Origin: Chondrosia reniformis
Taxonomy: Eukaryota > Porifera > Demospongiae > Chondrillida > Chondrillidae
Direction of reading: 5' to 3'
Assembly (NCBI GenBank): GCA_947172415.1
Contig: OX359191.1
Coordinates: 2,232,001-2,296,000, forward strand
DNA length: 64,000 bases
The position numbers were made by a program, and so were the translations under genes. The notes under the pieces are model-generated. The model was not told where the DNA came from and searched no databases. It saw only the letters and a list, made by a program, of their open reading frames with translations. This document shows positions 9,401 through 64,000 of this stretch, piece after piece; position 1 is the first letter of the stretch, and every line of letters starts with the position of its first letter.

Positions 9401-12400
9401 ATTAAAATTACAATCAAGTACTAGCTACACAGTGCAAGTGACAAATGTAAGACGGCCAAGTGACTATACATATTAAAATTACAATCAAGTACTAGCTACA
9501 CAGTGCCAGTTACAAATTTAAAGAGATCCAAGTGACCCCTATAGGATAATCAGTATTTTAAATAGTACGTATAGTTGCAGACTTTACTAGTGCATAGAGA
9601 TTAGTAGTTGATACAGATCATCCAATTGCAAGGTAGAACACATGGCCTACCAATTACCTTTCACACCTTAGTATATAGACTGAAGATGATGCATCTGCAT
9701 GCCATATATCAACAAAGGTTCCAGTCTTAAAGGGGTCTCAGCTAATAACCACAGCAGATTTGATTTGCCTTGTGAGGTAGCTAAGAATGCCGACGGTTGG
9801 TTGCATGCATTCGCATAATCAACAGGGTTAGAGACTATTTTGTAACTTGTACACAATATATATATATACACACCAACCATTCTGTGGTCAAACACCTTCC
9901 ATATTTAGTAATTGGAATGTAAACATTGCTGTTCTTATCAGAGTACGCATATACGGTGATTATTATATACTCTTATATAGAGCAATTAATGTGTAGGGAA
10001 TCTGCAAGGGATAGTAGCAATTATTTCGTTTCCTTATACATTTGCATAGGAGCATGTTTACTTTAGCAAATGAATGAACTTTGAAATCTCCCATTTGCGT
10101 TTTCTTGAGACACAAATTACTAACTATAGACTTTGCCTTAGAATGTACCTCTAGAACTTAAACAGAACACACAGTCATATTCAAAGACTTTTAAAATGCT
10201 CCAAATGAGGTAATAGGTACACACGAGCCAACATGGATGAATGTGTACATAAATATACAGTTGAATCTATCGAATATTCACTATACTGAATGTATTATAT
10301 TCTCTATTGTAATTACACTGCATATAAAAGTATACTGTTGCTGGGGCTAGCAATATACTGAGAGATTGACTATATGTACCGTATGAGCTTGCACGCATGC
10401 ATATTTATCCAAATCCACCCCTACGTATCCAATTACACTCCTGCATATGTACGTACACACATGGATAGGTAAAAATATTAACAGAAAACAAAAGAAGAGA
10501 TGTCATCATCATTAAACTCTGGGTATTACCCCTGCCCACTCATGTCCCCTGAGGAGCGCAATGAGCTGATGGGCGGAACCGAAGTTCGCTTGATGGGAAC
10601 CAGAGTCTCCCCCTAGCCACTCAAAAAGATGGTCGAGCAATAGACAGCTGTTTCGTCCTTATTAGGACTCATCAGTATGGCATACGATGGAAGTTTGAGT
10701 GGCTAGTCTGCTAATAAGTACTCCCAGAAGCAAAAAAAGCTTGTGGTTTCCTTATCAGCAGATAAGGGGTACAGCCAAGAGTGTGGCTGACCACTAATAT
10801 GGAAAAAAAAATAGGTCAACTTTAAGATCTAAAGCCGATCTTAAAGCATCGATGTCATCATCATTAAACTCTGGGTATTACCCCTGCCCACTCATGTCCC
10901 CTGAGGAGCGCAATGAGCTGATGGGCAGAACCGAAGTTCGCTTGATGGGAATCAGAGTCTCCCCCTAGCCACTCAAAAAGATGGTCGAGCCATAGAAAGC
11001 TGTTTCGTCCTTATTAGGACTCATCAGTATGGCATACGATGGAAGTTTGAGTGGCTAGTCTGCTAATAAGTACTCCCAGAAGCAAAAAAAGCTTGTGGTT
11101 TCCTTATCAGCAGATAAGGGGTACAGCCAAGAGTGTGGCTGACCACTAATATGGAAAAATTGGGGAACTTTAAGATCTGAAGCTGATCTTAGAGCATCGA
11201 TGTCATCATCATTAAACTCTGGGTACTTATTAGCAGACTAGCCACTCAAACTTCCATCGTATGCCATACTGATGAGTCCTAATAAGGATGAAACAGCTGT
11301 CTATGGCTCGACCATCTTTTTGAGTGGCTAGGGGGAGACTCTGGTTCCCATCAAGCGAACTTCGGTTCCGCCCATCAGCTCATTGCGCTCCTCAGGGGAC
11401 ATGAGTGGGCAGGGGTAATACCCAGAGTTTAATGATGATGACATCGATGCTTTAAGATCGGCTTTAGATCTTAAAGTTCCCCTATTTTTTTCCATATTAG
11501 TGGTCAGCCACACTCTTGGCTGTACCCCTTATCTGCTGATAAGGAAACCACAAGCTTTTTTTGCTTCTGGGAGTACTTATTAGCAGACTAGCCACTCAAA
11601 CTTCCATCGTATGCCATACTGATGAGTCCTAATAAGGACGAAACAGCTGTCTATGGCTCGACCATCTTTTTGAGTGGCTAGGGGGAGACTCTGGTTCCCA
11701 TCAAGCGAACTCCGGTTCCGCCCATCAGCTCATTGCGCTCCTCAGGGGACATGAGTGGGCAGGGGTAATACCCAGAGTTTAATGATGATGACATCGATGC
11801 TTTAAGATCGGCTTTAGATCTTAAAGTTCCCCTATTTTTTTTTTTTTCCAAAAGAAGAGATGGCGGAGCTTAAACTACCAAAGTTTTACTACGGTCATCT
11901 AAACGAATTTATTTTATTTATTTTACATCAATATATATATAGCAACAATTCTGGCTTAAACTTAACATGAACGTATACAAATACGCTTTATCTAACCTTC
12001 GCTACAACCAGCTTATTCCGTAGCTCTTTCTCGTAGGAGAGTGTCGACTTGTCATAGCCATTCACGAAAGGGATGATCTTCTTTAGCAACGAGGCAGTGA
12101 CGTTTTCTCAACATCACAAGATTCACTAAATGTTTACGGAGCGACATACGAGAGGTGTTGGTGACGCACAAGAATAACATCATAAAACATCATCAGATTG
12201 CGCAATCGTAACATTGAATTCTTCATTATTATCTTGATTATTTTGCTCATTTAATTAAGCAAAACTTCGCCAGATGTTTCCTATGCACATGTACCACGAT
12301 ATATGTCGGTTTCACAGTTATCTGACAAATTAAAATTTTTTATTAATATAACACATGGTTTGAATATAAATTTTCCATTGGTTTTCTATAGTCCTATGGC

Positions 12401-15400
12401 CTTTTATATGCAGACTTTGTCCTCTGTTTTCTAACAAAAGGAGGCCTAAATAAGAAATCCCTTAATTTAAAACGAGTTTTATACCCTATACTTTATGATG
12501 ATATGCCCATTTTGTTTCTAGATCCTTTCTTGGAGCCATATGAATTATTTAATTACATTATATTATATTATATTATTTATTTAGAATACCTTAGTATATT
12601 GTAACTTGCAATGTATATCTGTCACCAAAATGGCGGACGTTCGGCTGGCTTTGGTTTTCTAGCTTAAAATTCGCTTTCTCTTCCTTAGCGTCGAACATTA
12701 AACGAACGAAAAGGATTTAGAAACCATATTTATGAATACTATGTAACGTAAAGCTTGCGTGAAAGCGTTTTCTACGAGATTTGGCCTTGAAAAATTGACG
12801 GCACAGAACAAGAGTCGACGGGAATTGGTTAACCGGACATCTAACTAGAACCGGACATCTAATTTGTACCAGTCAAGTAGTTCAAGTTTACTTAGGGGCG
12901 CCTGGCGCCCCACAAGTTTTTTAAACTCGAACTACTTGATTAATTAAGTTTCAAATTCTCTGTATATAAAATAAGTAACTCGAGTGAATAATATTCGTGG
13001 TACTGCTGCAACCCGCGATCGAATTTCTTAGTCGCTTTGCAGGGCCTATATACAGTCGTATTCTTAACGATTATGGACCCTTTAATATCCTAAACTGAAT
13101 GATAAAGAACGGTAGAAAACATACTTATCAAATTTGGGATCTTTTCGGACGCCATTTTTAATTTAGAGCTCTCTATTATATCGTCTATTCTGCTACTTTA
13201 TTTCGAGTTTTCGCCAAGAAGACTTTCCAACAAATATTAACAAGAAAAAGGAGGCAATACAAGTTAAATAAAAACATTCAAAAATGAAGTTAAAAGTAGG
13301 GATGACACTTTAACAGTGATTGGCACATCTAGAAAAAGTAACGAAACAAGAAAGTGATCATATGGTAAGGCTAACATTGCAGAAGTGGCATACTGAAACT
13401 TAACTATACACATCACTTCTATGTTTGGGCGCATCGATCCCTACTTCTAGTATATCCATGATGCGACAATGCAAGTCTGACCTTTTGGTATAAAGATTGT
13501 GACTTCTTTTTTAGGAGCATCACAGCAGTAGAGTCCATTTCCAAGTTCACTAGTAGTAGCTATTCTAAATTTATATACAATACCTAGTTTAATTCCAGAT
13601 ATGCTAGCCATTGTAATTGAAGCATTTCCAATTTCAACAGTTTGAGGCAGGTAAGTGCTTAAAGCAACGTATTCCACGATGTATCCTTTCAATATAGTAT
13701 ACTAGTATACTAATCCATCTGGAGCCACTGGTGGAATCCAAGTTAATAGGATTACTTCCTTTGTTTTTGCAGAAACAGTTACATCTTCTGGAGGAGGTGC
13801 ATCAAGTTCTATACAAAAGCAAAAACTTAATTTTGCTACTCTTTGGCTGTTAATTTATACTACATACGCAGTACTTAACATACTGTGAAGGTTCTACTCG
13901 GTTGCACACGAACAACTATCGAGTTGCAATAGTAGAGCGCTTTGTTGTGTTGCAAATTCACAATTTAGTTCCTTGAAATCTCTCTCTCATCTAACTTCTC
14001 AATTACAAAACTCATATTAATAGCAAACTAGGTAGGAATGACCTTTACAAAAATCATGACTAGCTAATTTAAAAGTGAAAAGAAAGTGTGGAAACTACAT
14101 AACTTAAGACAAAAGTGAATAAGCTAAATTACAACTAAATCATTAAGATGGGAATGGATAAACTAGGACACACAGAATACATAGAACTGTCACATACACT
14201 ATAAGATCATACATAATTATATAATCTATTAGGTCATAGTTTAGTTAGTCAATAGCTCTGTAGTCCTAAGACTTCACACTCCTCCCCCCTTCTCCTGCGA
14301 CACGGCAGTCTGTCGCGCCATTCTCAATTTGGGACAGACCATCAGCATTATTGTTTACACTACCTGTTCGATAAGCTACCAAAAACTGATAAGGCTGCAA
14401 TGCCAGACTCCACCTAGCTAAGCGAGGGTTGGACTCCTTCAGACGGTCCAGCCACACTAAAGAGCGATGATCCGTTTGTACCTTGAAGGGTCTCCCTAGT
14501 AGATACACTGGAAAAGCCTGAACCCCTAGCTTTATTGCAAGACACTCCTTCTCTACAGTGGAGTATCGCTCCTCCCTTGGTAACAACTTCCTACTAAAGT
14601 ATGCAATTGGATGCTCCTCTCCATCCTTACTCCTTTGACTGAGGACTGCTCCCACCCCTCTGTTGGATGCATCTGTTTGTAGGATGAACTCCTCATCCAG
14701 GGAAGGACTGTGGAGTATATACAGGGCTACTGCATAGAATGTCCTTAAGTCGCTGGAATGCATCCTTGCAGGGCTTGTCCTAGGGGATTTTCTGTGGTAC
14801 AAACTTCTTGGTAAGGTCTGTAAGGGGAGTGGCTATGGAAGCATAATTTGGGATAAACCTTCGGTAATATCCAGTGAGTCCAAGAAAAGCCCGAACTTGC
14901 TTCTTGGTCTCTGGTACCTTCCACCTCTGGACAGCTTCAATCTTGCTGGTCTCCGGCTACACTAACTCATTACCTACAGTATGTCCCAGGTAAACACACT
15001 ATCTCATTGCAAACTGACATTTGCTCGGTTTAGCGGTTAATCCAGCTTCTTTCAGTCTCTGTAGGACCCTCGTGACATGCTGTAGGTGCTCCTCCCATGA
15101 GGTGCTAAAAACTACCAGATCATCTATATAGATAGGCTGCAGTGTAAGCCTCCAATCCACTGAGCAACTGATCCATCATCCGCTGGAAAGTTGCTGGAGC
15201 TCCCTGCAACCCAAATGGCATGGTGGTGAACTGGAACAACCCCTGCGGTGTGAGGAATGCAGTCTTCTCCATTGGGACCTGCCAATTATCACGTGACAGA
15301 TCCAAGGTTGCGAGGAACTTAGCCTTCCCCAGCTTGTCAAGGAGCTCATCAATCCTGGGCATCGGATAGGGATCAACTTTGGATATGGCATTCAATTTCC

Positions 15401-18400
15401 CGTAGTCTACGCAACAGCATAGGGTGCCATCCTTCTTTTGGACAAGGACAATTGGCGCTGCCCAACTGCTCTTGGAAGTTTCCACTATCCCAGCTTGCAG
15501 CATATCCGCAACAGCCCCCCTATAGGCACATGGAACTCTGTAGGGAGGAAGACGAATTGGGTTAGCTCCACCTGTATCAATATGAAGCTCCACTAAGGTA
15601 GTCCTCCCAGGGTCCGGGCACATGACCTCCCAGTATTCAAGTAATAGAGCAGCTAGCATTTGATGCTGCCCTTCTGTAAGCTGGTCAGAGATCATTGCTT
15701 CCCTGCTTGTGGGTGCATCTCCAGGTTGATCTCTCCAGTGCGGAACATCCTCGACTTCACCCACCTCCTCATTCCACAGGTTCAGGGTAGCTGGAGGGTG
15801 CCAGAGCTTCAACATGTTGACATGCAGGATTCTCTTCTTCTTTATATGATCAAACATATTGATTTCATATGTCACAGACCCAACCTTTCGCATGACTGGA
15901 TAAGGACTCTGCCATCACAGGGAAAACTGCCTTTGTGAACGGGTATTCACGAAATCCGTGGCATGCCAGGCTGACGGGAGTATACACGGCGTTTTAACGA
16001 TACGATACGTCACGGTCCCGTGGTAAGAATATACGGGTTAACACGAGTCTGTCAACAAGGCCGTTTATAATGATGTTTCGTCTTTAAACGCTCCGAAGAA
16101 CAACGGTTGCGGGTATACTATAAGTTCCGAAAACGGTACTATGAGTAGCACTAATGATAAAGGAGGAAAGTTTTGTCCTCATTGTTCTCAAATCGTTGCT
16201 CCTCGGACATATTATCTTCACAAAAATCAGTATTTCGATGTACAAACGAAGCAATGGCAGAAGGAGTTTGACCTAAGCCAGTATAGTTCAAGCGACGACT
16301 CTACGTTTGACGTAGATTCTCCACTTATTACTAAAGGAGGACTTATTGAGCAGGCTATGGATTTAAGTGATAGCTGTTGTCGTATCGGCGAGGAATCTTC
16401 ATCCACTGTGAGAACGTTTATAGCTACATATTCGGTCTGACTGTTAAAAGAGACACCCTGCAGTGTCTCTCTAACAGAAGACAGAGGCTCACAAAAATTC
16501 AAAAGCTTAAAATGATAAATTAATGTCGTGTAGGCGTGACTAGGTATCTATAGTAGTCGAGTAGCCTTCCATACACTCTTTTTCAAGCCAGTTAGAAATT
16601 CCCTAATCCTACGGCCAACTATTCAGTTATACCTTATGATGTGTAAAGATTTTATGCCTAAAATAAAACTTTACAAGTTAAATTAAACTACATTTCCCTT
16701 GAAAAAAGTCACTCTGGATACATATGTACATGATCGACGCAGTTACTGCATACTGTATACCAGGCCTAGGCAGGGTAACAATTAGTAGTTTATGTTGTTA
16801 TTAACTTTTTCATGTGTGTATCAATCATAACGAAAGTATATTATTAATGCAAGAAACAATATGCAAATCTAAAATTGCCATACGCCTTTGAAGACACTCC
16901 ATCAAAGTCTAGATCTGAAGGGGTATATATCTTGAATGGACCCCCGGGAATCCCCACATGTCCTTGCTCATGTACTAGACCATATAACTTTAGTTTATGA
17001 ATTATACATTGCGTATTTAGTGCTTCATGTGCTCTGCGCACTATATTTTGCCCCGTGTAGCACTGTACATGGATTACACAGAGCTAACACATGTCCTGTT
17101 AATATACAATTTTCTTTTTCCTTCATGGCTGCCTCCCTTTCTCTCTCGTCACGGCTGCCTCCCTTTCCCTCTCTTCAGGGCTACCTCCTTTTCTCCTTCA
17201 CGGCTAGCTGCCTCGCTTTCCCTTTCTTTGCACTACCCCCCTTTACCTCAGAAGACTGCATGCATAGGTATTTGAATTAATCTAGCAGCCTGTATTATCC
17301 TCTGAAATCACCATTGCAGCTTCTTGTATGTATAGTCTAAGACTTTTATGTTATATAGCCTGAGAAAATCCTATTTCTATAGATGTTTGCTGAAGACACC
17401 TCCAGCTCTGAATCTGAGTCAGAAAGAGAATCAACTTATGAATTTGATCAGTGTGATAGTAGTCAGGAATCAGATAATGGAACTGAAGACACATTTGCCA
17501 GTGAAACAGCATTTCCAATGCCTTTTTTACAACTCTTTCACTTCTTACTTGTTTGGCAGGCAACTTATAGATTTTCAAGTGCAGCTCTTTTGTCACTTTT
17601 GAAATACTTGAAAGCCTTTTGTGTTGCCATAGCTATTGCCTTTCAGTGTGTGCCGTTGCAAGAGTTTTCTAATGCAATGCCACTCACAAAAGCTGCATTG
17701 CACAAGTGTTTGCAGATAGAAAATGAGAATTTTACTGAATATGTGGTATGTCCAAAGTGTGCTGCTGTTTATTCTTTCGATTACTGCAAGCGAAATAATA
17801 AATTTTATGCTTTATCTTGTGTATACAAAGCACTTCCCAACCACCCACACTCCCAAAAAAGAAAAGAGTGTGGAGCCCAATTAATGAGAACTGTTCGAAC
17901 AAAATCTGGTTCTGTTTGTAGACCTATTAAAGTCTTTCCCTATCAGTCCATAAAGAAGGCCATTGCCTCTTTTACTCAAAGACCTGGGTTTGTAGAGTGC
18001 TGTGAATTGTGGAGAAAAAGAAGCAACTTCAAAGCTTCAGGCTATCTTGCTGATGTATATGATGGAGAAGTATGGAACCAGTATAGTGATTTTTTAGAGG
18101 CACCCTATAATTACTTGTTGACTCTTAATATTGATTGGTTTTCCCCATATGAGCATGGTAACTATTCTGTAGGTGCCATGTATCTAACTATACAGAACCT
18201 ACCCTTGTCTATAAGAAATAACCCAGACAATATCATACTCGTAGGAGTAATACCAGGCCCTGGTGAACCTCATTTAACTGTAAACAGTTACCTAACACCC
18301 TTGATAGAGGAATTACACAGTGCTTGGAATGGTTTTCAAGTTGTGGATACTACACTGAAGGGTACAGAAAGGACAATCACAGTTCGCCTAGCATTGACAT

Positions 18401-20182
18401 GCGTTGCTTGTGACATTCCAGCTACTCGTAAGGTTTGTGGGTTTCTTGGGCATAGGGCTACACTAGGCTGTAATAAATGTTTAAAAAGTTTGAGCAAATT
18501 AGAGAAGATGGTTCAAACTCTATATGGACAAACTATGGGGGCTTTAATAGAAGTGAAAGGAATTTGCGTACAGGTGCAGATCATCGTCAGCGTTGTTCAA
18601 GCATTGGTCAATTATTTAGGGACAGTGGTACCAAGTCATCACTTATGGAGGCAGAATCAAGGAATGGTCTACGTTATTCTGTTCTTCTAGACCTCCCATA
18701 TTTTGATCCAATTCGTTATCCTATAATAGACCCTATGCATATTTTATTTTTAGGTACAGGAAATGATGAAAGTGTGGTTGAGACAACCTAATTTACTATC
18801 AAAGCAGAACCTAGAACAAATTGAGTCATTGATAAAGAAATTTGTAATTCCAGAGGGTATGGGGCGCCTTCCTAGTAATATAACATCGCATTTTGGAGGA
18901 TTCACAGCAGATCAGTGGAGAAGCTGGATAACCATTTATTCGGCGGTGTTGATGTGGCATGTGCTTGGTCCACAACACTGGAATTGCTGGATATTGTTTG
19001 TTCAAGCTGTTAAAATTATCATATGTCGTGTTCTGACTATCTCAGATTTGCACCAAGCTAATGACCTTCTGCAAGAATTTTGTACCAAATTTCAAGAACT
19101 TTATGGAGATAAAGAGTGCACTATTAACATGCATCTGCACCTGCACTTGATTAATTGTTTGCAAGACTATGGACCATCAAATGCATTTTGGCTGTATGCC
19201 TTTGAACGGTATAATGGAATATTAGGTTCGTTCCCAACTAACAATATTCAGATAGAAAGCCAGATAATGAAGAGATTTCTGGGAAGTCAATATATAGTTC
19301 CTGGAAAGGCTCTTGGTGGTACTATCTTAACTGAAGCATATTCTAAATTGAACATTTTAAGTAAAGCTAATCAGATGTACAAGAATGCAAGCAACTTGTG
19401 CTTAGACAACATCGACATTAAGCAACTTTTAACGGCTTCATTTGGCCCCCTGGATAATGTAAGTGTACCACTTTGTATTGGGTTCAGTCGCATGTTAAAG
19501 TCTATTGGGCCATTCAAAGATGATGTACTAAGTGATTTCGAGGCTCTAAAAATTAATAATGTCATGCAAGAAGTGTTTGGTCCAGGGACAGAGCTAAAGT
19601 CTAGGTTTTATATCAAGTTTAGAAAACTTTTGATTGGAGTTGACATAGTTGGATCCAGCATGTACAAAGCAAGTGCTACTTCCACACTTATCATGGCTTA
19701 TTGGCCGAGTGTACTTCGTACTATACCTGATTGGAATGTTGGTGAGGTGCAGTATTTTTTAGAAATTACTGCTATCTCTATACAAGAGGCCAATAACGTT
19801 GTTGAATGGAAGCAGATATTTGCATTTGTTCTTTGGAAAAAGCAACATGCATTCAAGAATTTGCTCACAGAGAATATAGCATTTATATGTGAAACAGAGG
19901 GAAACCATGAGGAATGCAAATGGAACTATTTACCTGTGCATCGTATCACAAGAAGATGTGCACATGTGACCATGCCCTTCAAATTCCCTAGTGGTATAAC
20001 TGAAGTTGTAACTGTTGCTTGTCCATTGCACTTACGGTTAAAACTTTAGTAGTAGCTACGTATAATTTACAATTGTAATTTTATGGATGAAATATACATA
20101 TGAAATTAAAAGGTCTGTATTTAATGCAGCAATGTGCAATTATATAGAATTGTAAATAATTATGTTAAGCTGATGATTGCAG

Positions 20183-58100: not shown

Positions 58101-60171
58101 TTCCAAAATATTCTACAAAGGCAGGCAAACGTATGGTTCACATCAGGTAAACAATCATTGACCAACTCCTGATTTATACAGTTTGTAGTACACCAATATA
58201 ATAGCAGTTCAGCAAATAACAATTACTACTCCAAACAGCCTGTATATACTAATATAATTTGCAAATCATTCCTAATATTTACAACACAACACAGTTATCC
58301 TTCAGTATTCCATCACATTAGTAACTTTTCATTGGGAAAGGAAAAGTAACAAGCTGCTGTGCAAGACTGAACCAAAAACGGCTAATTTACACATAAATTT
58401 ATTAAGCGGGTTTGGATCTCTATTTCCATTAAATAATATTACTGACACATGAACTCTACATATACGTATATGGTCCAAAGTCGGGTTAATGCTTTTTTAC
58501 GAGGAGAAACAGAGATTCATTAAAGCACAGAAATAAAATTAATGCAAGGTTTACAAATCTATAGCTTGTGATACTCATATAAGTAATATTTCAGTAAATG
58601 AAGCTGTAAAATACATGTAAGCACCATCACACCTTTGATACATTTGATGGACAGTTGCAAGTGGTAGGTATGTCTTCACTTCCTTGCTGGTTCAAAACTT
58701 CCTTTCTTACATCTTCCTTAAATGCAGATTTCAATCGTGAGTCACCTGGAATAATACGGCAACCTTAATTGTCTAATTACCACATACATACAAAGATATA
58801 TAAACACACTATATTGTGCCATTGTCCTAATTCTTCTTGAGCTATAAGCATATTGCTATGACAACATTAGTTAAAACATTTACAGATAGGCCATTTCAAA
58901 AACAACCAATATAAGTCAAAAATGACTAGAGAGGCAAGCATAATAATCTTGTGCTAGGACGTATGCCTCCATATACAAGTTGTCTCCTTATGTTATTACA
59001 ATTGTGTACATGATCATGAGGCACTCGCTTACAAGGGAATAAACACAGTCTATAGTACTACTCCTATCAACAAATTCCTACCCTATACTGCTCTTATACC
59101 TTCAGTTGCAATGAAGTTAAGCTGTTCATTTAATTCTTGCAATTTATTCTGCATCTTAATACTAACAAGTACATCTTTCATGACAGTACCATGACCACTA
59201 TCTAGACGAGCCAATTTCAAAAACATGAAATTAAAATCATTACAAATACAAAACTTTCTGACAAAGAGGACCTTTAACCACTTAATTGATCTCCATTTGT
59301 GGTAAACGTGTATATGGTGGATTCCTGATAAGAGGCTATACAATGCAGCTTCACTGTAGTTCAGCCTGGCAGTATGGACCCACAGAGACCACACAAGCCC
59401 ATACAGGCATGAAAAGACAGCAACAGACAAAAGTACATAATTGATGATCCAGGCAGCCAAATGAGACCTTAGGACTGGTAAGGAACATGAAATTTTAGAG
59501 CTATCAAGCCATGCCAAGGCATCAATTTCACGAGAACTGCTTTCAAATGAACAGTTAAACCTAGTATGAAACTGATCCACCTTGAAAACCCATGCTGAAA
59601 TAAGAATACCGCCAATGACTACTGAAAGCTGCAAAACAACCTTGGCAATATATGTAAGGTATATAATTTGAGATCTCTTAAAGGTACGCTCGAGATTACG
59701 AACTATATTAGTAGTGTCAGGGGAATATTCTCCGGTTTTGCTGTCTTTATGTCGGTCCATGGACGTTGCTTGCCGAAGAAAGGTGTAAAACTTTCCATAA
59801 TGAACAGTCTTCCATACGTAGTGAACACTGCCTAGCAATATTCCCTCAACGAAGAGGAAGAGCGGTACATAATACGTAGGAGGGACCTGGTGGCGACAGT
59901 ATTCGTTTATAAAGTCATTTTGTCGTATGGTAGGTTCTCCTGGAACGAAGCAGTGCATGGAGCCTCTTAGTAAGGATGAAGCAATGTCAAGGCCAGCCAA
60001 ACCAAATACTGCTGTGGCAACATAGCTAGTAATTAGATCCCAAAAGAAATCTGGAAATTTGCTGGTAGCTGTATCTTGTAATCTATCTCTGGGTCGTGGC
60101 GTAAAGTATTCAGCTGCTCTGCTTATACCAGACCTTATCCTCTCAAAGAGCGACAGCGAATTGTCGGCCAT
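55113..60171 (-). CDS. LRRC8/pannexin-like four-pass channel protein
   Basis: Seven exons: 59100-60171, 58633-58745, 57924-58112, 57370-57507, 56075-56340, 55753-55819, 55113-55220. All junctions agree in phase and total 651 codons including the stop. Starts MADNSLSLFERIRSG. Membrane helices at about residues 44-66, 100-122, 170-195 and 238-265; two Cys in each outer loop (74/92 and 207/229), as in pannexins and LRRC8. The segment NDFNFMFLKLARLDSGHGTV followed by 'QNKLQELN' parallels the LRRC8 intracellular linker. LRRC8 proteins form volume-regulated anion channels at the plasma membrane. Here the C-terminal ~290 residues have no leucine-rich repeats but a mixed domain ('NLIIVGPFTDEDRRMTVHWF'). 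Substrate is unknown. Confidence 0.75.
57004..57346. mobile_element. Pogo/Tigger-like MITE
   Basis: 343 bp with ends CAGTGGACCCTCGCTTATCC and (inverse) CAGTAGAACCTCGGTTATCC, flanked by TA at 57002-57003 and 57347-57348. It sits in an intron of the channel gene, 23 bases from the splice donor after 57370. Ends of this kind are typical of pogo/Tigger relatives. No transposase inside. Confidence 0.75.
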
Positions 60172-60809: not shown

Positions 60810-63498
60810 ATGAGCGTAGATGGGAAGCAGAAACTGGCTCCCAAGCCTTCCACAGAATGTAGACTCACGTACCCTTTAACAGTGGCTCTCTGCGCTGGTC
60901 AGGGTTTCAATACCAGTGGGATTGATAGTGAGCGTCACATCGACTACTCGTTATCAATGAAGCGGAGGGCAGATTTAACTCCAGTAGAGAAAGAAAAGCG
61001 CAGAAAGATAAGGAATAGGATTGCATCTCAGAACTCCAGGGAGAAGAAAAAGAGGCTCGTGGAAGATTTAGAAAGAAGAATATCAGCTCTGGAAGAAATG
61101 GTGAGTAATTATGTGATATAAAGAATAATCGTATATTGTTGTAAATGTAGTCATTATTAGTGTGTCGAGACAGCTCTTTAATTTAGTACCGAAAGCGTAT
61201 ATTGTATAGCTGGAAATATTGACGATTTTTGATATTGGTTAATTTAATAGTAGTGCTTGCCTTGTCCCCATCTTATAATAATAACGTCACAATATATTAC
61301 ATCACTATGGTGCAATAATATTGGTGGATCGTAATTGGGTGATTCGTGTGAAGATGGCCAATTTGCCAAAATATATTCTCCGCGAATATTTCCGGCTATA
61401 CGGTAACAGGTATTCACCATTAACTTTTTTGTAAATTGTACCATACATTAATAATTGTTTTTTTTATTAACCCTTTATGCGTGAGATAATTACGTGGGCG
61501 TAATAATCGCCAGAAGCGATATTTAATTGTCACGAGGACACCATGAGGCAGGAATTAAAATTCATCACCTTGCAAGGTACTCTAGGATTGCTGAGACTGG
61601 ACAAAGGTTGGTGCCCATCCTGAAGAGGAAGATAGAAGTGCCTTTGGCGAATGGGTTGGTCTTTGACTGTTTTACCTTGATAGCTATCTTGGATACCGTC
61701 TGGATGGATTGTGAGATGGAAACATCAGAGATCAAAAGGTGCCGAGCACTATCACTACCAATCCCAAAGTGATGCACACCAAAAGACTTGTCATGTTGCC
61801 AGGATGATGATGGTGTGTATCTTGGAGGGATTGGGGCCTCCACGCCCAACTGGCATGGGGACTTTGGGGTCCACGCCCAACTGCCAGTAGATATTTCATA
61901 GGTATTTGAACCTCAGGACTGCCTATACTCACCAGTGGAGGTGGCTGGCTGCTGTGTGATGTTGTTGGTGGCTGGCTGCTGTGTGATGTAATTGGTGGCT
62001 GGCTGCTGTGTGATGTAGTTGGTGGCTGGCTGCTGTGTGATGTAGTTGGTGGCTGGCTGCTGTGTGATGTAGTTGGTGGCTGGCTGCTAGGTGATTTGGT
62101 TGATGCTTGTTGACTGCTGTCCTCCTTAACCACAAATGTGGGTTCCTTAGAGGACACTTTCTTAATGACTTCAACTACAGATAAGTTGTCTATGTGAAGT
62201 TGAACATGTTACCCTAACGATTGAAATCCCCAAATAGCACAAGCAAGGACCACAGGGACCAATTCTTTGACCATGATGTTAACTGAGTCCCACTATAAAG
62301 GCCATTGTCCTTGTAACCACAAATTGCCCCAGATTGCCCCACAACCAAAATTACCTGATGCATCAGTGAACATATTCATGGAAGGGACCACCTGCTGCGT
62401 CCAGTTGAGAAAGGTAATTCCATTCCAGGAATCTACACAACTTGACCACCATGCTAAATCGGAGCAGAAGTCTACATTTAGGCGAATGTGGTGATGAGGT
62501 GCCCTTGGGATTGATAACAAATTGATCATCCTTCTTAAGAATGGCCGACCCTAAGGATCTACTCTGTTTTAAGAGTTTACAAGAATGCTTGGACTAGTTT
62601 TCACTTCTTTCATCCTTCGTATGGAATATCCTGAAGCATGGAGTGATGCAAAGAAGATTTGGCTGGTCAGCTGAACAGCTTTTGCATCAGTAGCTTTGTT
62701 AGTTTTCTAATTCCACTCTTGCTGCAAGCAAAATACTTTGGTAGAGTATCAATAAAGTTTCTAGTATGATTTATTATAGAAGTTTATTTTTTGAGGTATT
62801 TTAAACCAAAACATTTGAGTGCCGTTAATTTGACCATATGTCTTTGCTCCTTAGGCAGCACATTCCATGTGACATCGAGAAGAAAGAGCAATCTTTATTG
62901 TTCATTATAAATTTAAATAAAAGCCTGTACATCCTACGCAAAGCCTAAATCAAAGTGGTTTGTTTACATAACTTTACGAACCACTATAGTGGTCCATAAA
63001 TGATGATGTGTAAGTGAAAGTGAAAAATGTGAATGATAAAAGGTTAAATAAAATGGTTTTTATTTTATTTATGCCTGTGAATAATGTGCTAAAGTAGTTA
63101 TATCATTAAATTTGATTTCCTCCTTAACATTTATAGAATAAAAAGTTAATCCAGGAGAATATCAGTTTAAGAGAAAAAAATAGCTCCCTTGAGAAGGAAA
63201 ATACTTCACTTCAGAGGAATGTCATCACGTCTAAGAATACTCCATTAGTATTTAGGGAAAGTGTTTCAGATCCATCTGTTATTGGTGTTTCTGCAAGTCT
63301 TGGTAATGAAAGCTTAAGTAAATCTGTTTTAGACAGTAACCACGAGAAGAGTAAAGTTGTTGGTACACCTAAGTCAGCAGCACTTGGTTGTATTTCTCTG
63401 CAGAAGAAATATCTAGCCAGTCAACTTTCACCCTTCTGCCTCAAAGCAACACATTCAATGACTTGCAGTTTCTTGATCAAAGTATTGCTGATAATGAG
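60810..63498 (+). CDS. XBP1: XBP1-type bZIP transcription factor, 5' part
   Basis: Exons 60810-61100 (donor ATG|GTGAGT) and 63137-63498 (acceptor ttatag, donor GAG|GTACGT); more exons lie beyond the window. Basic region KRRKIRNRIASQNSREKKKR (N69..A72 S73..S76 R77) resembles XBP1. The zipper leucines fall at 87, 94, 101, 108, 115 and 122, running unbroken across the exon junction, which proves the splice. XBP1 drives the unfolded-protein response in the nucleus after IRE1 removes a short cytoplasmic intron. The matching intron is present (63381-63403). With it removed exon 2 is 339 nt and open; with it kept, the frame differs and ends in TAA just past the donor, with a hydrophobic stretch (CSFLIKVLLIM). 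Confidence 0.88.
61530..62560 (-). mobile_element. DIRS-like retroelement relic in XBP1 intron
   Basis: Minus strand, in order: RNase H-like part 'LAWWSSCVDSWNGITFL' and 'NMFTDASGNFGCGAIWGNLW' (62530-62293), then a linker, then a tyrosine-recombinase piece IAIKVKQSKTNPFAKGTSIF followed by 'NLCPVSAILEYLAR' (61680-61565). RT/RNase H before a tyrosine recombinase is the DIRS layout. Much is deleted and the frame is broken. The rest of the intron (61140-61520 and 62570-63130) shows nothing clear. Confidence 0.65.
61930..62095. repeat. 27-bp minisatellite
   Basis: About six copies of GTTGGTGGCTGGCTGCTGTG plus TGATGTA, in frame in the minus-strand relic as a nine-residue repeat TTSHSSQPP. Lies between RNase H and recombinase parts of the DIRS-like element. 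Confidence 0.8.
63381..63403 (+). other. Non-conventional IRE1-type intron in XBP1 mRNA
   Basis: 23 nt bounded by CAGCAG|C at 63375-63381 and CTGCAG|A at 63398-63404, both fitting the IRE1 loop rule CNGCNG|N. Each sits in a 7-nt loop on a stem: CCTAAGT with ACTTGG (one bulge) on the 5' side, and GTATTTCT with AGAAATAT on the 3' side. Removal moves reading from PKSAALGCISL to PKSAEEISSQSTFTLLPQSN, open to the next donor. No GT-AG borders exist here, so the spliceosome would not use it. Confidence 0.85.
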
Positions 63499-64000
63499 GT
63501 ACGTATATTAATGTTTCCCTATCTTGCTTATTGTTTGTGAATGGTTGTTAAAAAGGTTAAATGTATATTGTATGCTATTCAGTTATTTAATCTTGTTTGC
63601 CCAAAATAGAAATATCTAACATTTGGTCTTTGGGCATTAAGGGAGTACGGAATGTATTAACACACTAGCGTTGAAGTTAGCCCTATTTCACTCTATACAT
63701 ATATACAGTGGACCCTTACTTATCTGGCCACAGTGGGACCAAGCTATGGCCAGATAACTGAAACAGCCGGATAAGTGCTACCAAGTCACAATTAGAACAC
63801 AAACATATGTACTCATGTATAATTCTCCTATTGATGGTTGCTTTAGAATATCCAACTTGCTTTCCGGTGACAAAACTACACGTTTTTTGATATAGATACT
63901 GCCATTTTCAAGTGGTTAAGTAACAATATGGCAGTTTGCTACATGGCTTACATCCGCTTCACGTAGAAAGTAAGGTCTGGTCTAACTCGTATTCAAGTTT
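63499..64000. other. XBP1 intron start with pogo-like MITE end
   Basis: From about 63710 the sequence CAGTGGACCCTTACTTATCT plus GGCC, with GGCCAGATAACTGAAACAGC downstream, matches the MITE at 57004. Its other end is outside the window. No exon recognised. Confidence 0.55.

What the first reader, a model, noticed from the sequence alone, without database searches (positions are those of the whole stretch)
63375..63410. XBP1 homologue with a 23-nt IRE1 intron in an early-branching animal
Seen: two CNGCNG|N sites 23 nt apart, each in a 7-nt loop on a pairing stem, inside the exon after a bZIP region. Removing exactly 23 nt switches to a second long open frame and makes the exon length a multiple of three. 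Known: IRE1 cuts XBP1 mRNA at such loops (26-nt intron in vertebrates). Inferred: the IRE1-XBP1 switch works here. The unspliced frame ends soon after with a hydrophobic run, like the membrane-tethering tail of unspliced XBP1. The 3' loop has A rather than C after the cut.
Basis: partly seen in the sequence, partly recalled or inferred. Interest (0 to 1): 0.88.

Follow-up and report, generated by a model that had tools for sequence, protein, structure and literature searches.

The report
Sponge XBP1 stress-switch gene
A sponge carries the same tiny removable RNA segment that other animals cut out of the XBP1 message to switch on their response to misfolded proteins, and its uncut message seems to end in a relative of the protein tail that in mammals holds the message near the cutting enzyme.

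Summary
Confirmed, with one correction. The window matches, by assembly size, chromosome 3 of the demosponge Chondrosia reniformis. It holds exons 1-2 of an XBP1 gene; exon 3 lies just outside. Two 7-nt loops, CAGCAG|C and CUGCAG|A, bound 23 nt (63381-63403): the only such looped pair in 80 kb (none in 60 shuffles), and a full-length match to Rfam RF04247 (Hac1/Xbp1 intron), barely above its cut-off. Removing it joins the bZIP to an acidic C-terminus. IRE1 and RtcB genes are present. The unspliced frame runs into exon 3 and ends with W, S, W, P, L and the stop in register with the human XBP1u arrest peptide; none of 200,000 synonymous recodings of the spliced frame scores as high, but only 3 of 8 key arrest residues are kept. 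Sponge XBP1 and 23-nt introns (fly) are known, so this is a new member of a known kind; the possible news is the age of the XBP1u tail. No RNA data were available. By-catch: four innexin-family genes in a sponge, a group reported to lack them.

The parts
60810..61100 (+). XBP1 exon 1: ATG (TAA directly before it in frame), N-terminus and bZIP basic region plus start of zipper; GT donor at 61101
   Evidence: bZIP_1 and bZIP_2 above cut-off
61101..63136 (+). ordinary (GT-AG) intron 1; carries a 27-nt, 6-copy tandem repeat at 61940-62102
63137..63498 (+). XBP1 exon 2: rest of leucine zipper, IRE1 intron, start of both alternative C-termini; 362 nt, 339 nt after IRE1 splicing
63353..63428 (+). whole Hac1/Xbp1 intron RNA structure (outer stem plus two hairpins), RF04247
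   Evidence: 41.8 bits, cut-off 41, model positions 1-72
63369..63387 (+). 5' hairpin with 7-nt loop CAGCAG|C (63375-63381), predicted IRE1 cut after 63380
63381..63403 (+). 23-nt IRE1 intron; the PstI site CTGCAG at 63398-63403 ends it and is lost on splicing
63390..63412 (+). 3' hairpin with 7-nt loop CUGCAG|A (63398-63404), predicted IRE1 cut after 63403
63404..63498 (+). stretch coding in two frames: start of the acidic C-terminus (spliced) and of the hydrophobic tail (unspliced)
63458..63498 (+). first part of the HR2-like hydrophobic segment of the unspliced protein (residues 205-223 of 284); the rest is in exon 3
   Evidence: 19-residue hydropathy 1.72; human HR2 construct 1.62; weak evidence,
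63499..64000 (+). start of ordinary intron 2 (GT donor 63499; ends TTTTAG at 64569 in extended coordinates). Exon 3, outside the window at G000:C3:2296570-2296839 (64570-64839 extended; L003 3971-4240), ends the spliced protein (299 aa) and, at 64771, the unspliced one (284 aa)

Best explanation
This is the XBP1 gene of a sponge. Shown from sequence: a bZIP gene whose second exon contains a complete Hac1/Xbp1-type IRE1 intron of 23 nt, with two long overlapping frames behind it. Inferred: under ER stress IRE1 cuts after 63380 and 63403, RtcB joins the ends, and the frame shifts so that the bZIP gains a 121-residue acidic C-terminus (22 D+E, 2 K+R), presumably an activation domain. Without stress the ribosome reads the other frame through the exon 2-exon 3 junction and makes a 284-residue protein with a hydrophobic segment about 60 residues before its end and a C-terminus that resembles the human XBP1u arrest peptide. 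By analogy with mammals the tail would hold the mRNA and ribosome at the ER membrane next to IRE1. The splice switch is the well-supported part (about 0.9); that the tail really pauses the ribosome is much less certain (about 0.45).
For: RF04247 over its full length. Only looped pair in 80 kb, 0 in 60 shuffles; a narrow pattern of the site occurs once in the genome. Removing 23 nt keeps phase into exon 3 and gives an acidic 121-aa C-terminus; the third frame stops after 3 codons. IRE1: three RNase-region exons joined match solved IRE1 at E 1.2e-44, with an unbroken DLLRAMRNKKHHYREL block; kinase motifs, by my reading, lie upstream. RtcB: 5 matching stretches on C8. Unspliced end: 5 of 13 identical to the human arrest peptide (native Ser255), stop in register, BLOSUM62 score 33; 1 of 3903 stop-anchored 13-mers of the 80 kb reaches this score, itself, the next has 18; 0 of 200,000 synonymous redraws of the spliced frame reach it (maximum 21). 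Pro258 and Leu259 are kept with different codons while the overlapping spliced-frame residues differ.
Against: No RNA reads seen. Rfam score only 0.8 bits over the cut-off. No bZIP phylogeny: I found no other animal's XBP1 protein (0 hits; 13 PDB sequences, best CREB1, none named XBP1). On the human XBP1 18-mer printed in PMC7564462 this gene scores best of 13 bZIP loci (63), but L013 has more identities (11 against 10 of 18; score 56). Two of the 5 RtcB stretches contain a TAG. By identity count alone 2 of 3903 13-mers have 5 or more matches, and over the last 14 codons plain identity does not separate the frames: unspliced 4 of 14 with the printed Ala255 construct (5 with native Ser), spliced 3 of 13, third frame 3 of 13; the score rests largely on two tryptophans. 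Of eight arrest positions that PMC6624018 calls optimal, W249, W256 and P258 are kept; Y241, P244, G250, R251, H252 are not, nor is L246. The hydrophobic segment is not special given the spliced frame: 356 of 3436 open redraws are at least as hydrophobic. The unspliced frame staying open is only moderately unlikely (335, 409 and 60 of 20,000 in three nulls).
Confidence: 0.9

Rival explanations
1. The hairpins are cut by IRE1 but not rejoined: the site serves decay of the mRNA (RIDD-like) and the spliced protein is rarely or never made.
For: CNGCNG-type loops are also substrates of IRE1-dependent decay (general knowledge). No RNA data here.
Against: Two loops bound a segment whose removal is in phase with a 90-codon acidic exon 3 frame; the full double-hairpin model matches; RtcB is present.
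Confidence: 0.04
2. The intron and frames are conserved, but the tail of the unspliced protein no longer pauses ribosomes; it is a leftover or only makes the protein unstable. (Compatible with the splice switch, so its odds do not add to those of the main explanation.)
For: Only 3 of the 8 optimal arrest positions named in PMC6624018 are kept, and L246 is lost; the hydrophobic segment is matched by about a tenth of open redraws.
Against: Both tryptophans that frame the tunnel turn, Ser255, Pro258, Leu259 and the stop position are kept; 0 of 200,000 redraws score as high.
Confidence: 0.4
3. Similarity of the tail to the human arrest peptide is a by-product of shared DNA ancestry with selection in the spliced frame alone.
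For: Plain identity over the last 14 codons is similar in all three frames (4 of 14, 3 of 13, 3 of 13), and K-L-D/E in the spliced frame makes S-W easy in the other.
Against: 0 of 200,000 whole-tail and 0 of 300,000 local synonymous redraws reach the observed score; Pro258-Leu259 are kept by different codons under different spliced-frame residues.
Confidence: 0.15
4. The gene is another bZIP (CREB3/OASIS or ATF6 type) and the hairpins are chance.
For: L013 in the same genome has a basic region as close to human XBP1 by identity; the nearest solved bZIP by sequence is CREB1.
Against: RF04247, two-frame architecture, tail match, position of the intron soon after the zipper.
Confidence: 0.02

Closest known systems
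Drosophila Xbp1 (23-nt IRE1 intron)
   Same: Intron length 23 nt (PMC8948244 and PMC4528330 passages); frame switch; unspliced tail with hydrophobic region and conserved Trp256 (PMC4138184 passages).
   Different: Sponge tail keeps Ser255 (fly has Ala) and lacks Leu246, which the fly keeps.
Human XBP1
   Same: Two 7-nt CNGCNG|N loops, shift into an acidic C-terminus, hydrophobic segment then arrest peptide ending at the same residue (human loops recalled).
   Different: Intron 23 instead of 26 nt (26 from the finding and recall); A after the 3' cut; 5 of 13 arrest residues identical; the hydrophobic segment spans an exon junction and ends 61 rather than 53 residues before the end.
XBP1 of calcareous sponges (Leucetta and others, PMC11214833)
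   Same: Sponge XBP1 induced by stress; IRE1 splicing is drawn in their model (Fig. 6 legend).
   Different: Those Calcarea have two or more copies; one found here. In its main text 'intron' and 'stem-loop' occur 0 times, so hairpins and unspliced tail are not analysed there; supplements not seen.
Fungal HAC1 / plant bZIP60
   Same: Same IRE1 mechanism; HAC1 and Xbp1 introns share the name of Rfam family RF04247.
   Different: Other bZIPs; yeast uses the ligase Trl1 (PMC4891664 abstract and introduction); intron lengths vary (recalled).

Membership tests
Hac1/Xbp1 IRE1 intron (RF04247) | paired hairpins with 7-nt CNGCNG|N loops in the conserved fold, above the curated score | tested here: met
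   41.8 bits against 41, model 1-72; loops checked
Hac1/Xbp1 IRE1 intron (RF04247) | excised by IRE1 under ER stress and ends rejoined | not testable with these tools
   no RNA data; RNA run ERR10177766 of the same specimen exists (PMC12181767)
XBP1 | bZIP domain | tested here: met
   PF00170 38.5 bits (cut-off 27.6), PF07716 36.6 (22.3)
XBP1 | groups with XBP1 in a bZIP phylogeny | not tested
   no other animal's XBP1 protein found: 0 hits, none so named among 13 PDB sequences
XBP1 | basic region like XBP1 rather than other bZIPs | tested here: inconclusive
   best score of 13 bZIP loci (63), but L013 has 11 identities of 18 against 10
XBP1 | removing the IRE1 intron switches frame into an acidic C-terminal domain | tested here: met
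XBP1u arrest peptide | C-terminal residues and stop in register with the human peptide | tested here: met
   5 of 13 identical, score 33; 0 of 200,000 redraws; but plain identity does not separate the frames
XBP1u arrest peptide | the eight residues reported as optimal for arrest | tested here: not met
   3 of 8 kept (W249, W256, P258); list from PMC6624018, alignment
XBP1u arrest peptide | pauses the ribosome | not testable with these tools
   needs in vitro translation
IRE1-RtcB machinery in the same genome | IRE1 RNase and RtcB genes | tested here: met

The most novel reading that the evidence does not exclude
Probability: 0.45. Interest if true: 0.58.

Novelty: new member of a known kind. 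Interest (0 to 1): 0.42.

Why it matters
It places the IRE1-XBP1 switch, with intron, both frames, enzyme and ligase genes, in a demosponge chromosome. If the tail pauses ribosomes, co-translational delivery of XBP1 mRNA to the ER, studied in mammals and flies, would date back to early animals, together with an overlapping-frame coding region of that age. The splice test is easy: a PstI site is lost on splicing, as in the fly assay of PMC4138184, and RNA reads of this specimen are public.

Tried and rejected

Protein homologues: two searches with the unspliced and spliced proteins gave nothing (615 candidates, none at E 0.01 or better; 958 candidates, none at 1 or better). The same collection returned the window's own single-exon innexin-like protein and one paralogue, so it may hold only single-exon predictions of this animal; I do not count the empty results as evidence of rarity.

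PDB searches with the unspliced tail found no XBP1u chain: 4 and 2 weak matches, best E 0.42 and 0.93. A 13-residue match is short for that test, so I used stop-anchored and synonymous-redraw nulls instead.

Genome-wide search with RF04247 gave 0 matches at E 10, but it scored 73 of 3358 candidates and missed even this locus, so it says nothing on uniqueness; the narrower pattern was used.

Hydrophobic segment as independent evidence: rejected. The script read the wrong record of a multi-record file; repeated correctly.

Structure prediction of the innexin-like protein gave no usable model (mean pLDDT 47.8); no fold search was made.

Literature: ten searches. Seven of them (6, 20, 23, 24, 27, 40, 54) bear on XBP1 evolution, sponges or the arrest peptide. 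Only titles and openings of abstracts were listed, and only 20 of 70, 27 and 130 papers; among those shown I saw none reporting an IRE1 intron or XBP1u tail analysed in a sponge. Hooks and Griffiths-Jones 2011, the likeliest place for an earlier report, is not held, so prior description is possible.

Full report
Where it lies. The window is G000:C3:2232001-2296000 of a 117,379,552-base assembly in 15 contigs. The published genome of the demosponge Chondrosia reniformis has 14 chromosomes plus a mitochondrial contig, 117.37 Mb, chromosome 3 of 9.42 Mb (PMC12181767, passages read); contig C3 here is 9,415,654 bases. I take the species as C. reniformis by inference from these sizes. They do not agree to the base: one legend of the paper gives 117,390,217 and its table 8.96 Mb for chromosome 4, against 8,954,400 for C4 here.

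The gene. Exon 1 is 60810-61100, intron 1 has GT-AG ends, exon 2 is 63137-63498. I fetched the DNA beyond the window and found exon 3 at 64570-64839 in extended window coordinates (acceptor TTTTAG, 90 codons including the stop). The exon limits are my reading of splice signals and phase; no transcript was available. The joined protein has a bZIP domain above Pfam's cut-offs. Its bZIP region finds only its own two exons in the genome at E 0.001 (14 candidates scored); thirteen stretches match the bZIP_1 family. Against the human XBP1 stretch RRKLKNRVAAQTARDRKK, as printed in PMC7564462 (passage), this gene scores best of the 13 loci (63), but L013 is close (56) and has one more identity (11 against 10 of 18). 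Among solved structures the nearest bZIP is CREB1, E 2.1e-5; none of 13 listed is named XBP1. So the basic region alone does not prove XBP1; the intron and the two frames do the work.

The intron. Loops CAGCAGC and CTGCAGA, cuts 23 nt apart, both on stems. In 80 kb, both strands, this is the only pair of such sites 20-30 nt apart; 60 dinucleotide shuffles gave none. Rfam RF04247 covers both hairpins and the outer stem with 41.8 bits against a cut-off of 41 and stays above it in the 64-kb scan. Folding energy by itself is unremarkable. Twenty-three nucleotides is the length in Drosophila (PMC8948244 and PMC4528330 passages), so length is not a novelty. The human 26 nt is taken from the finding and from recall.

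The two products. Without the 23 nt the frame runs in phase through exon 3 to a 299-residue protein whose last 121 residues hold 22 D+E and 2 K+R. With the 23 nt the protein has 284 residues and ends in exon 3 at 64771. But recoding the spliced frame at random gives as hydrophobic a segment in 356 of the 3436 redraws (of 60,000) that stay open for 50 codons, so this is weak evidence.

The tail. The last 13 residues WRMYHKSWTPLKK-stop align without gaps to the human WGRHQPSWKPLMN-stop: Trp249, Ser255, Trp256, Pro258, Leu259 and the stop coincide. The construct in the paper carries Ala255; the same paper names the native residue as Ser, and I used Ser for the comparison. Among 3903 stop-anchored 13-mers of the 80 kb, both strands, this one scores 33 and the next 18; by identity count 2 of 3903 reach 5. 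Because the spliced frame overlaps, I recoded it synonymously 200,000 times: 175,130 redraws gave a stop after 13 or more codons, none reached 33, maximum 21; of 300,000 local redraws 36,764 kept a stop at the same place and none reached 33. Shuffling the 67-residue tail reached the score 13 times and the identity count 213 times in 200,000. Pro258 and Leu259 are kept with different codons (CCT/CCA, CTG/TTA) where the spliced-frame residues differ. This favours selection on the unspliced frame. Against: over the last 14 codons plain identity does not separate the frames (unspliced 4 of 14 with the Ala255 construct, spliced 3 of 13, third frame 3 of 13; nucleotides 22 of 42), and the score rests largely on the two tryptophans. 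Only 3 of the 8 positions called optimal for arrest in PMC6624018 (passages) are kept, and Leu246, needed in human cells and kept in fly (PMC4138184 passages), is not. Homology of the tail is therefore better supported than pausing.

The machinery. The RNase domain of IRE1 is found on C4; three exons joined match solved IRE1 at E 1.2e-44 (16 distinct sequences at E 0.001, all named IRE1), with the block around the catalytic residues unchanged (residue roles recalled). Kinase motifs lie upstream on the same strand, by my reading. RtcB matches lie on C8 (5 stretches, 2 of them with a TAG inside, so read past exon ends or imperfect).

Mechanism. Shown: gene structure by splice signals, intron structure, two frames, presence of the enzyme genes. 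Inferred from the known pathway: ER stress activates IRE1, both loops are cut, RtcB ligates, the acidic domain is joined to the bZIP. Inferred with less confidence: the unspliced tail recruits the mRNA to the ER by SRP and pausing as in mammals (PMC4456659 and PMC6624018 passages).

What is known. XBP1 is reported in sponges, with extra copies in Calcarea (PMC11214833 passages); a bZIP survey included three sponges (PMC4736632 passages). Coelho et al. [quoted passage not shown] Among the papers listed in searches (lists partly cut) I saw none on the intron or tail in a sponge; the Hooks and Griffiths-Jones survey could not be read. Verdict: a new member of a known kind, well supported, with one point of wider interest, the age of the XBP1u tail.

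By-catch. Head to head with XBP1, 639 bp from start to start, lies a single-exon gene of the innexin family, one of four found on this chromosome (14 candidates scored). All four pass the PF00876 cut-off (26.8-30.4 bits, cut-off 25), over about a third of the profile, and share four cysteines placed as in innexin loops by my reading. A profile of the four finds 29 PDB sequences at E 1 or better, 28 of them pannexins or innexin-6; 2 are at E 0.001 or better, best 3.1e-4. Against: a single-sequence PDB search found no innexin or pannexin, the protein collection held no relative beyond a paralogue at E 1, and the structure prediction was too poor to use. Sponges are stated to lack innexins in PMC8769644 (passage). 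This deserves its own study.

Noticed in passing
window 59083-60171 (-), and G000:C3 1307572, 2209141, 2215666 (L026, L027, L028): Four single-exon innexin/pannexin-family genes in a sponge chromosome (PF00876, four of four over the cut-off; a profile of them hits 29 PDB sequences at E 1 or better, 28 pannexin or innexin, best 3.1e-4). Sponges are stated to lack innexins (PMC8769644). Against: single-sequence PDB search empty of innexins, structure model unusable..
   Followed up: yes
window 10499-11843: Two Hammerhead type I ribozymes (RF00163, 11613-11657 + and 10989-11033 -) in roughly 350-bp tandem dimers, two dimers facing each other; looks like retrozyme-type repeats (name recalled)..
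   Followed up: partly
window 61940-62102: 27-nt tandem repeat, 6 copies, inside XBP1 intron 1.
   Followed up: no
window 15120-15914 (-), 17383-18690 and 18754-20049 (+): Transposon pieces: reverse transcriptase (RVT_1) with an Integrase_p58_C match in the same frame, and a tnp2-type transposase (Transposase_21) followed by a frame with a DUF4218 match below its cut-off.
   Followed up: no
L013 (G000:C4:59574-59762): A second bZIP with RRKINNRKSAQESRQRKK, close to XBP1 in its basic region and perhaps CREB3/OASIS-like (name recalled).
   Followed up: no
L003 5952-7502 (-): Downstream of XBP1 on the other strand, two long frames (327 and 188 aa) that look to me like one multi-pass membrane protein.
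   Followed up: no
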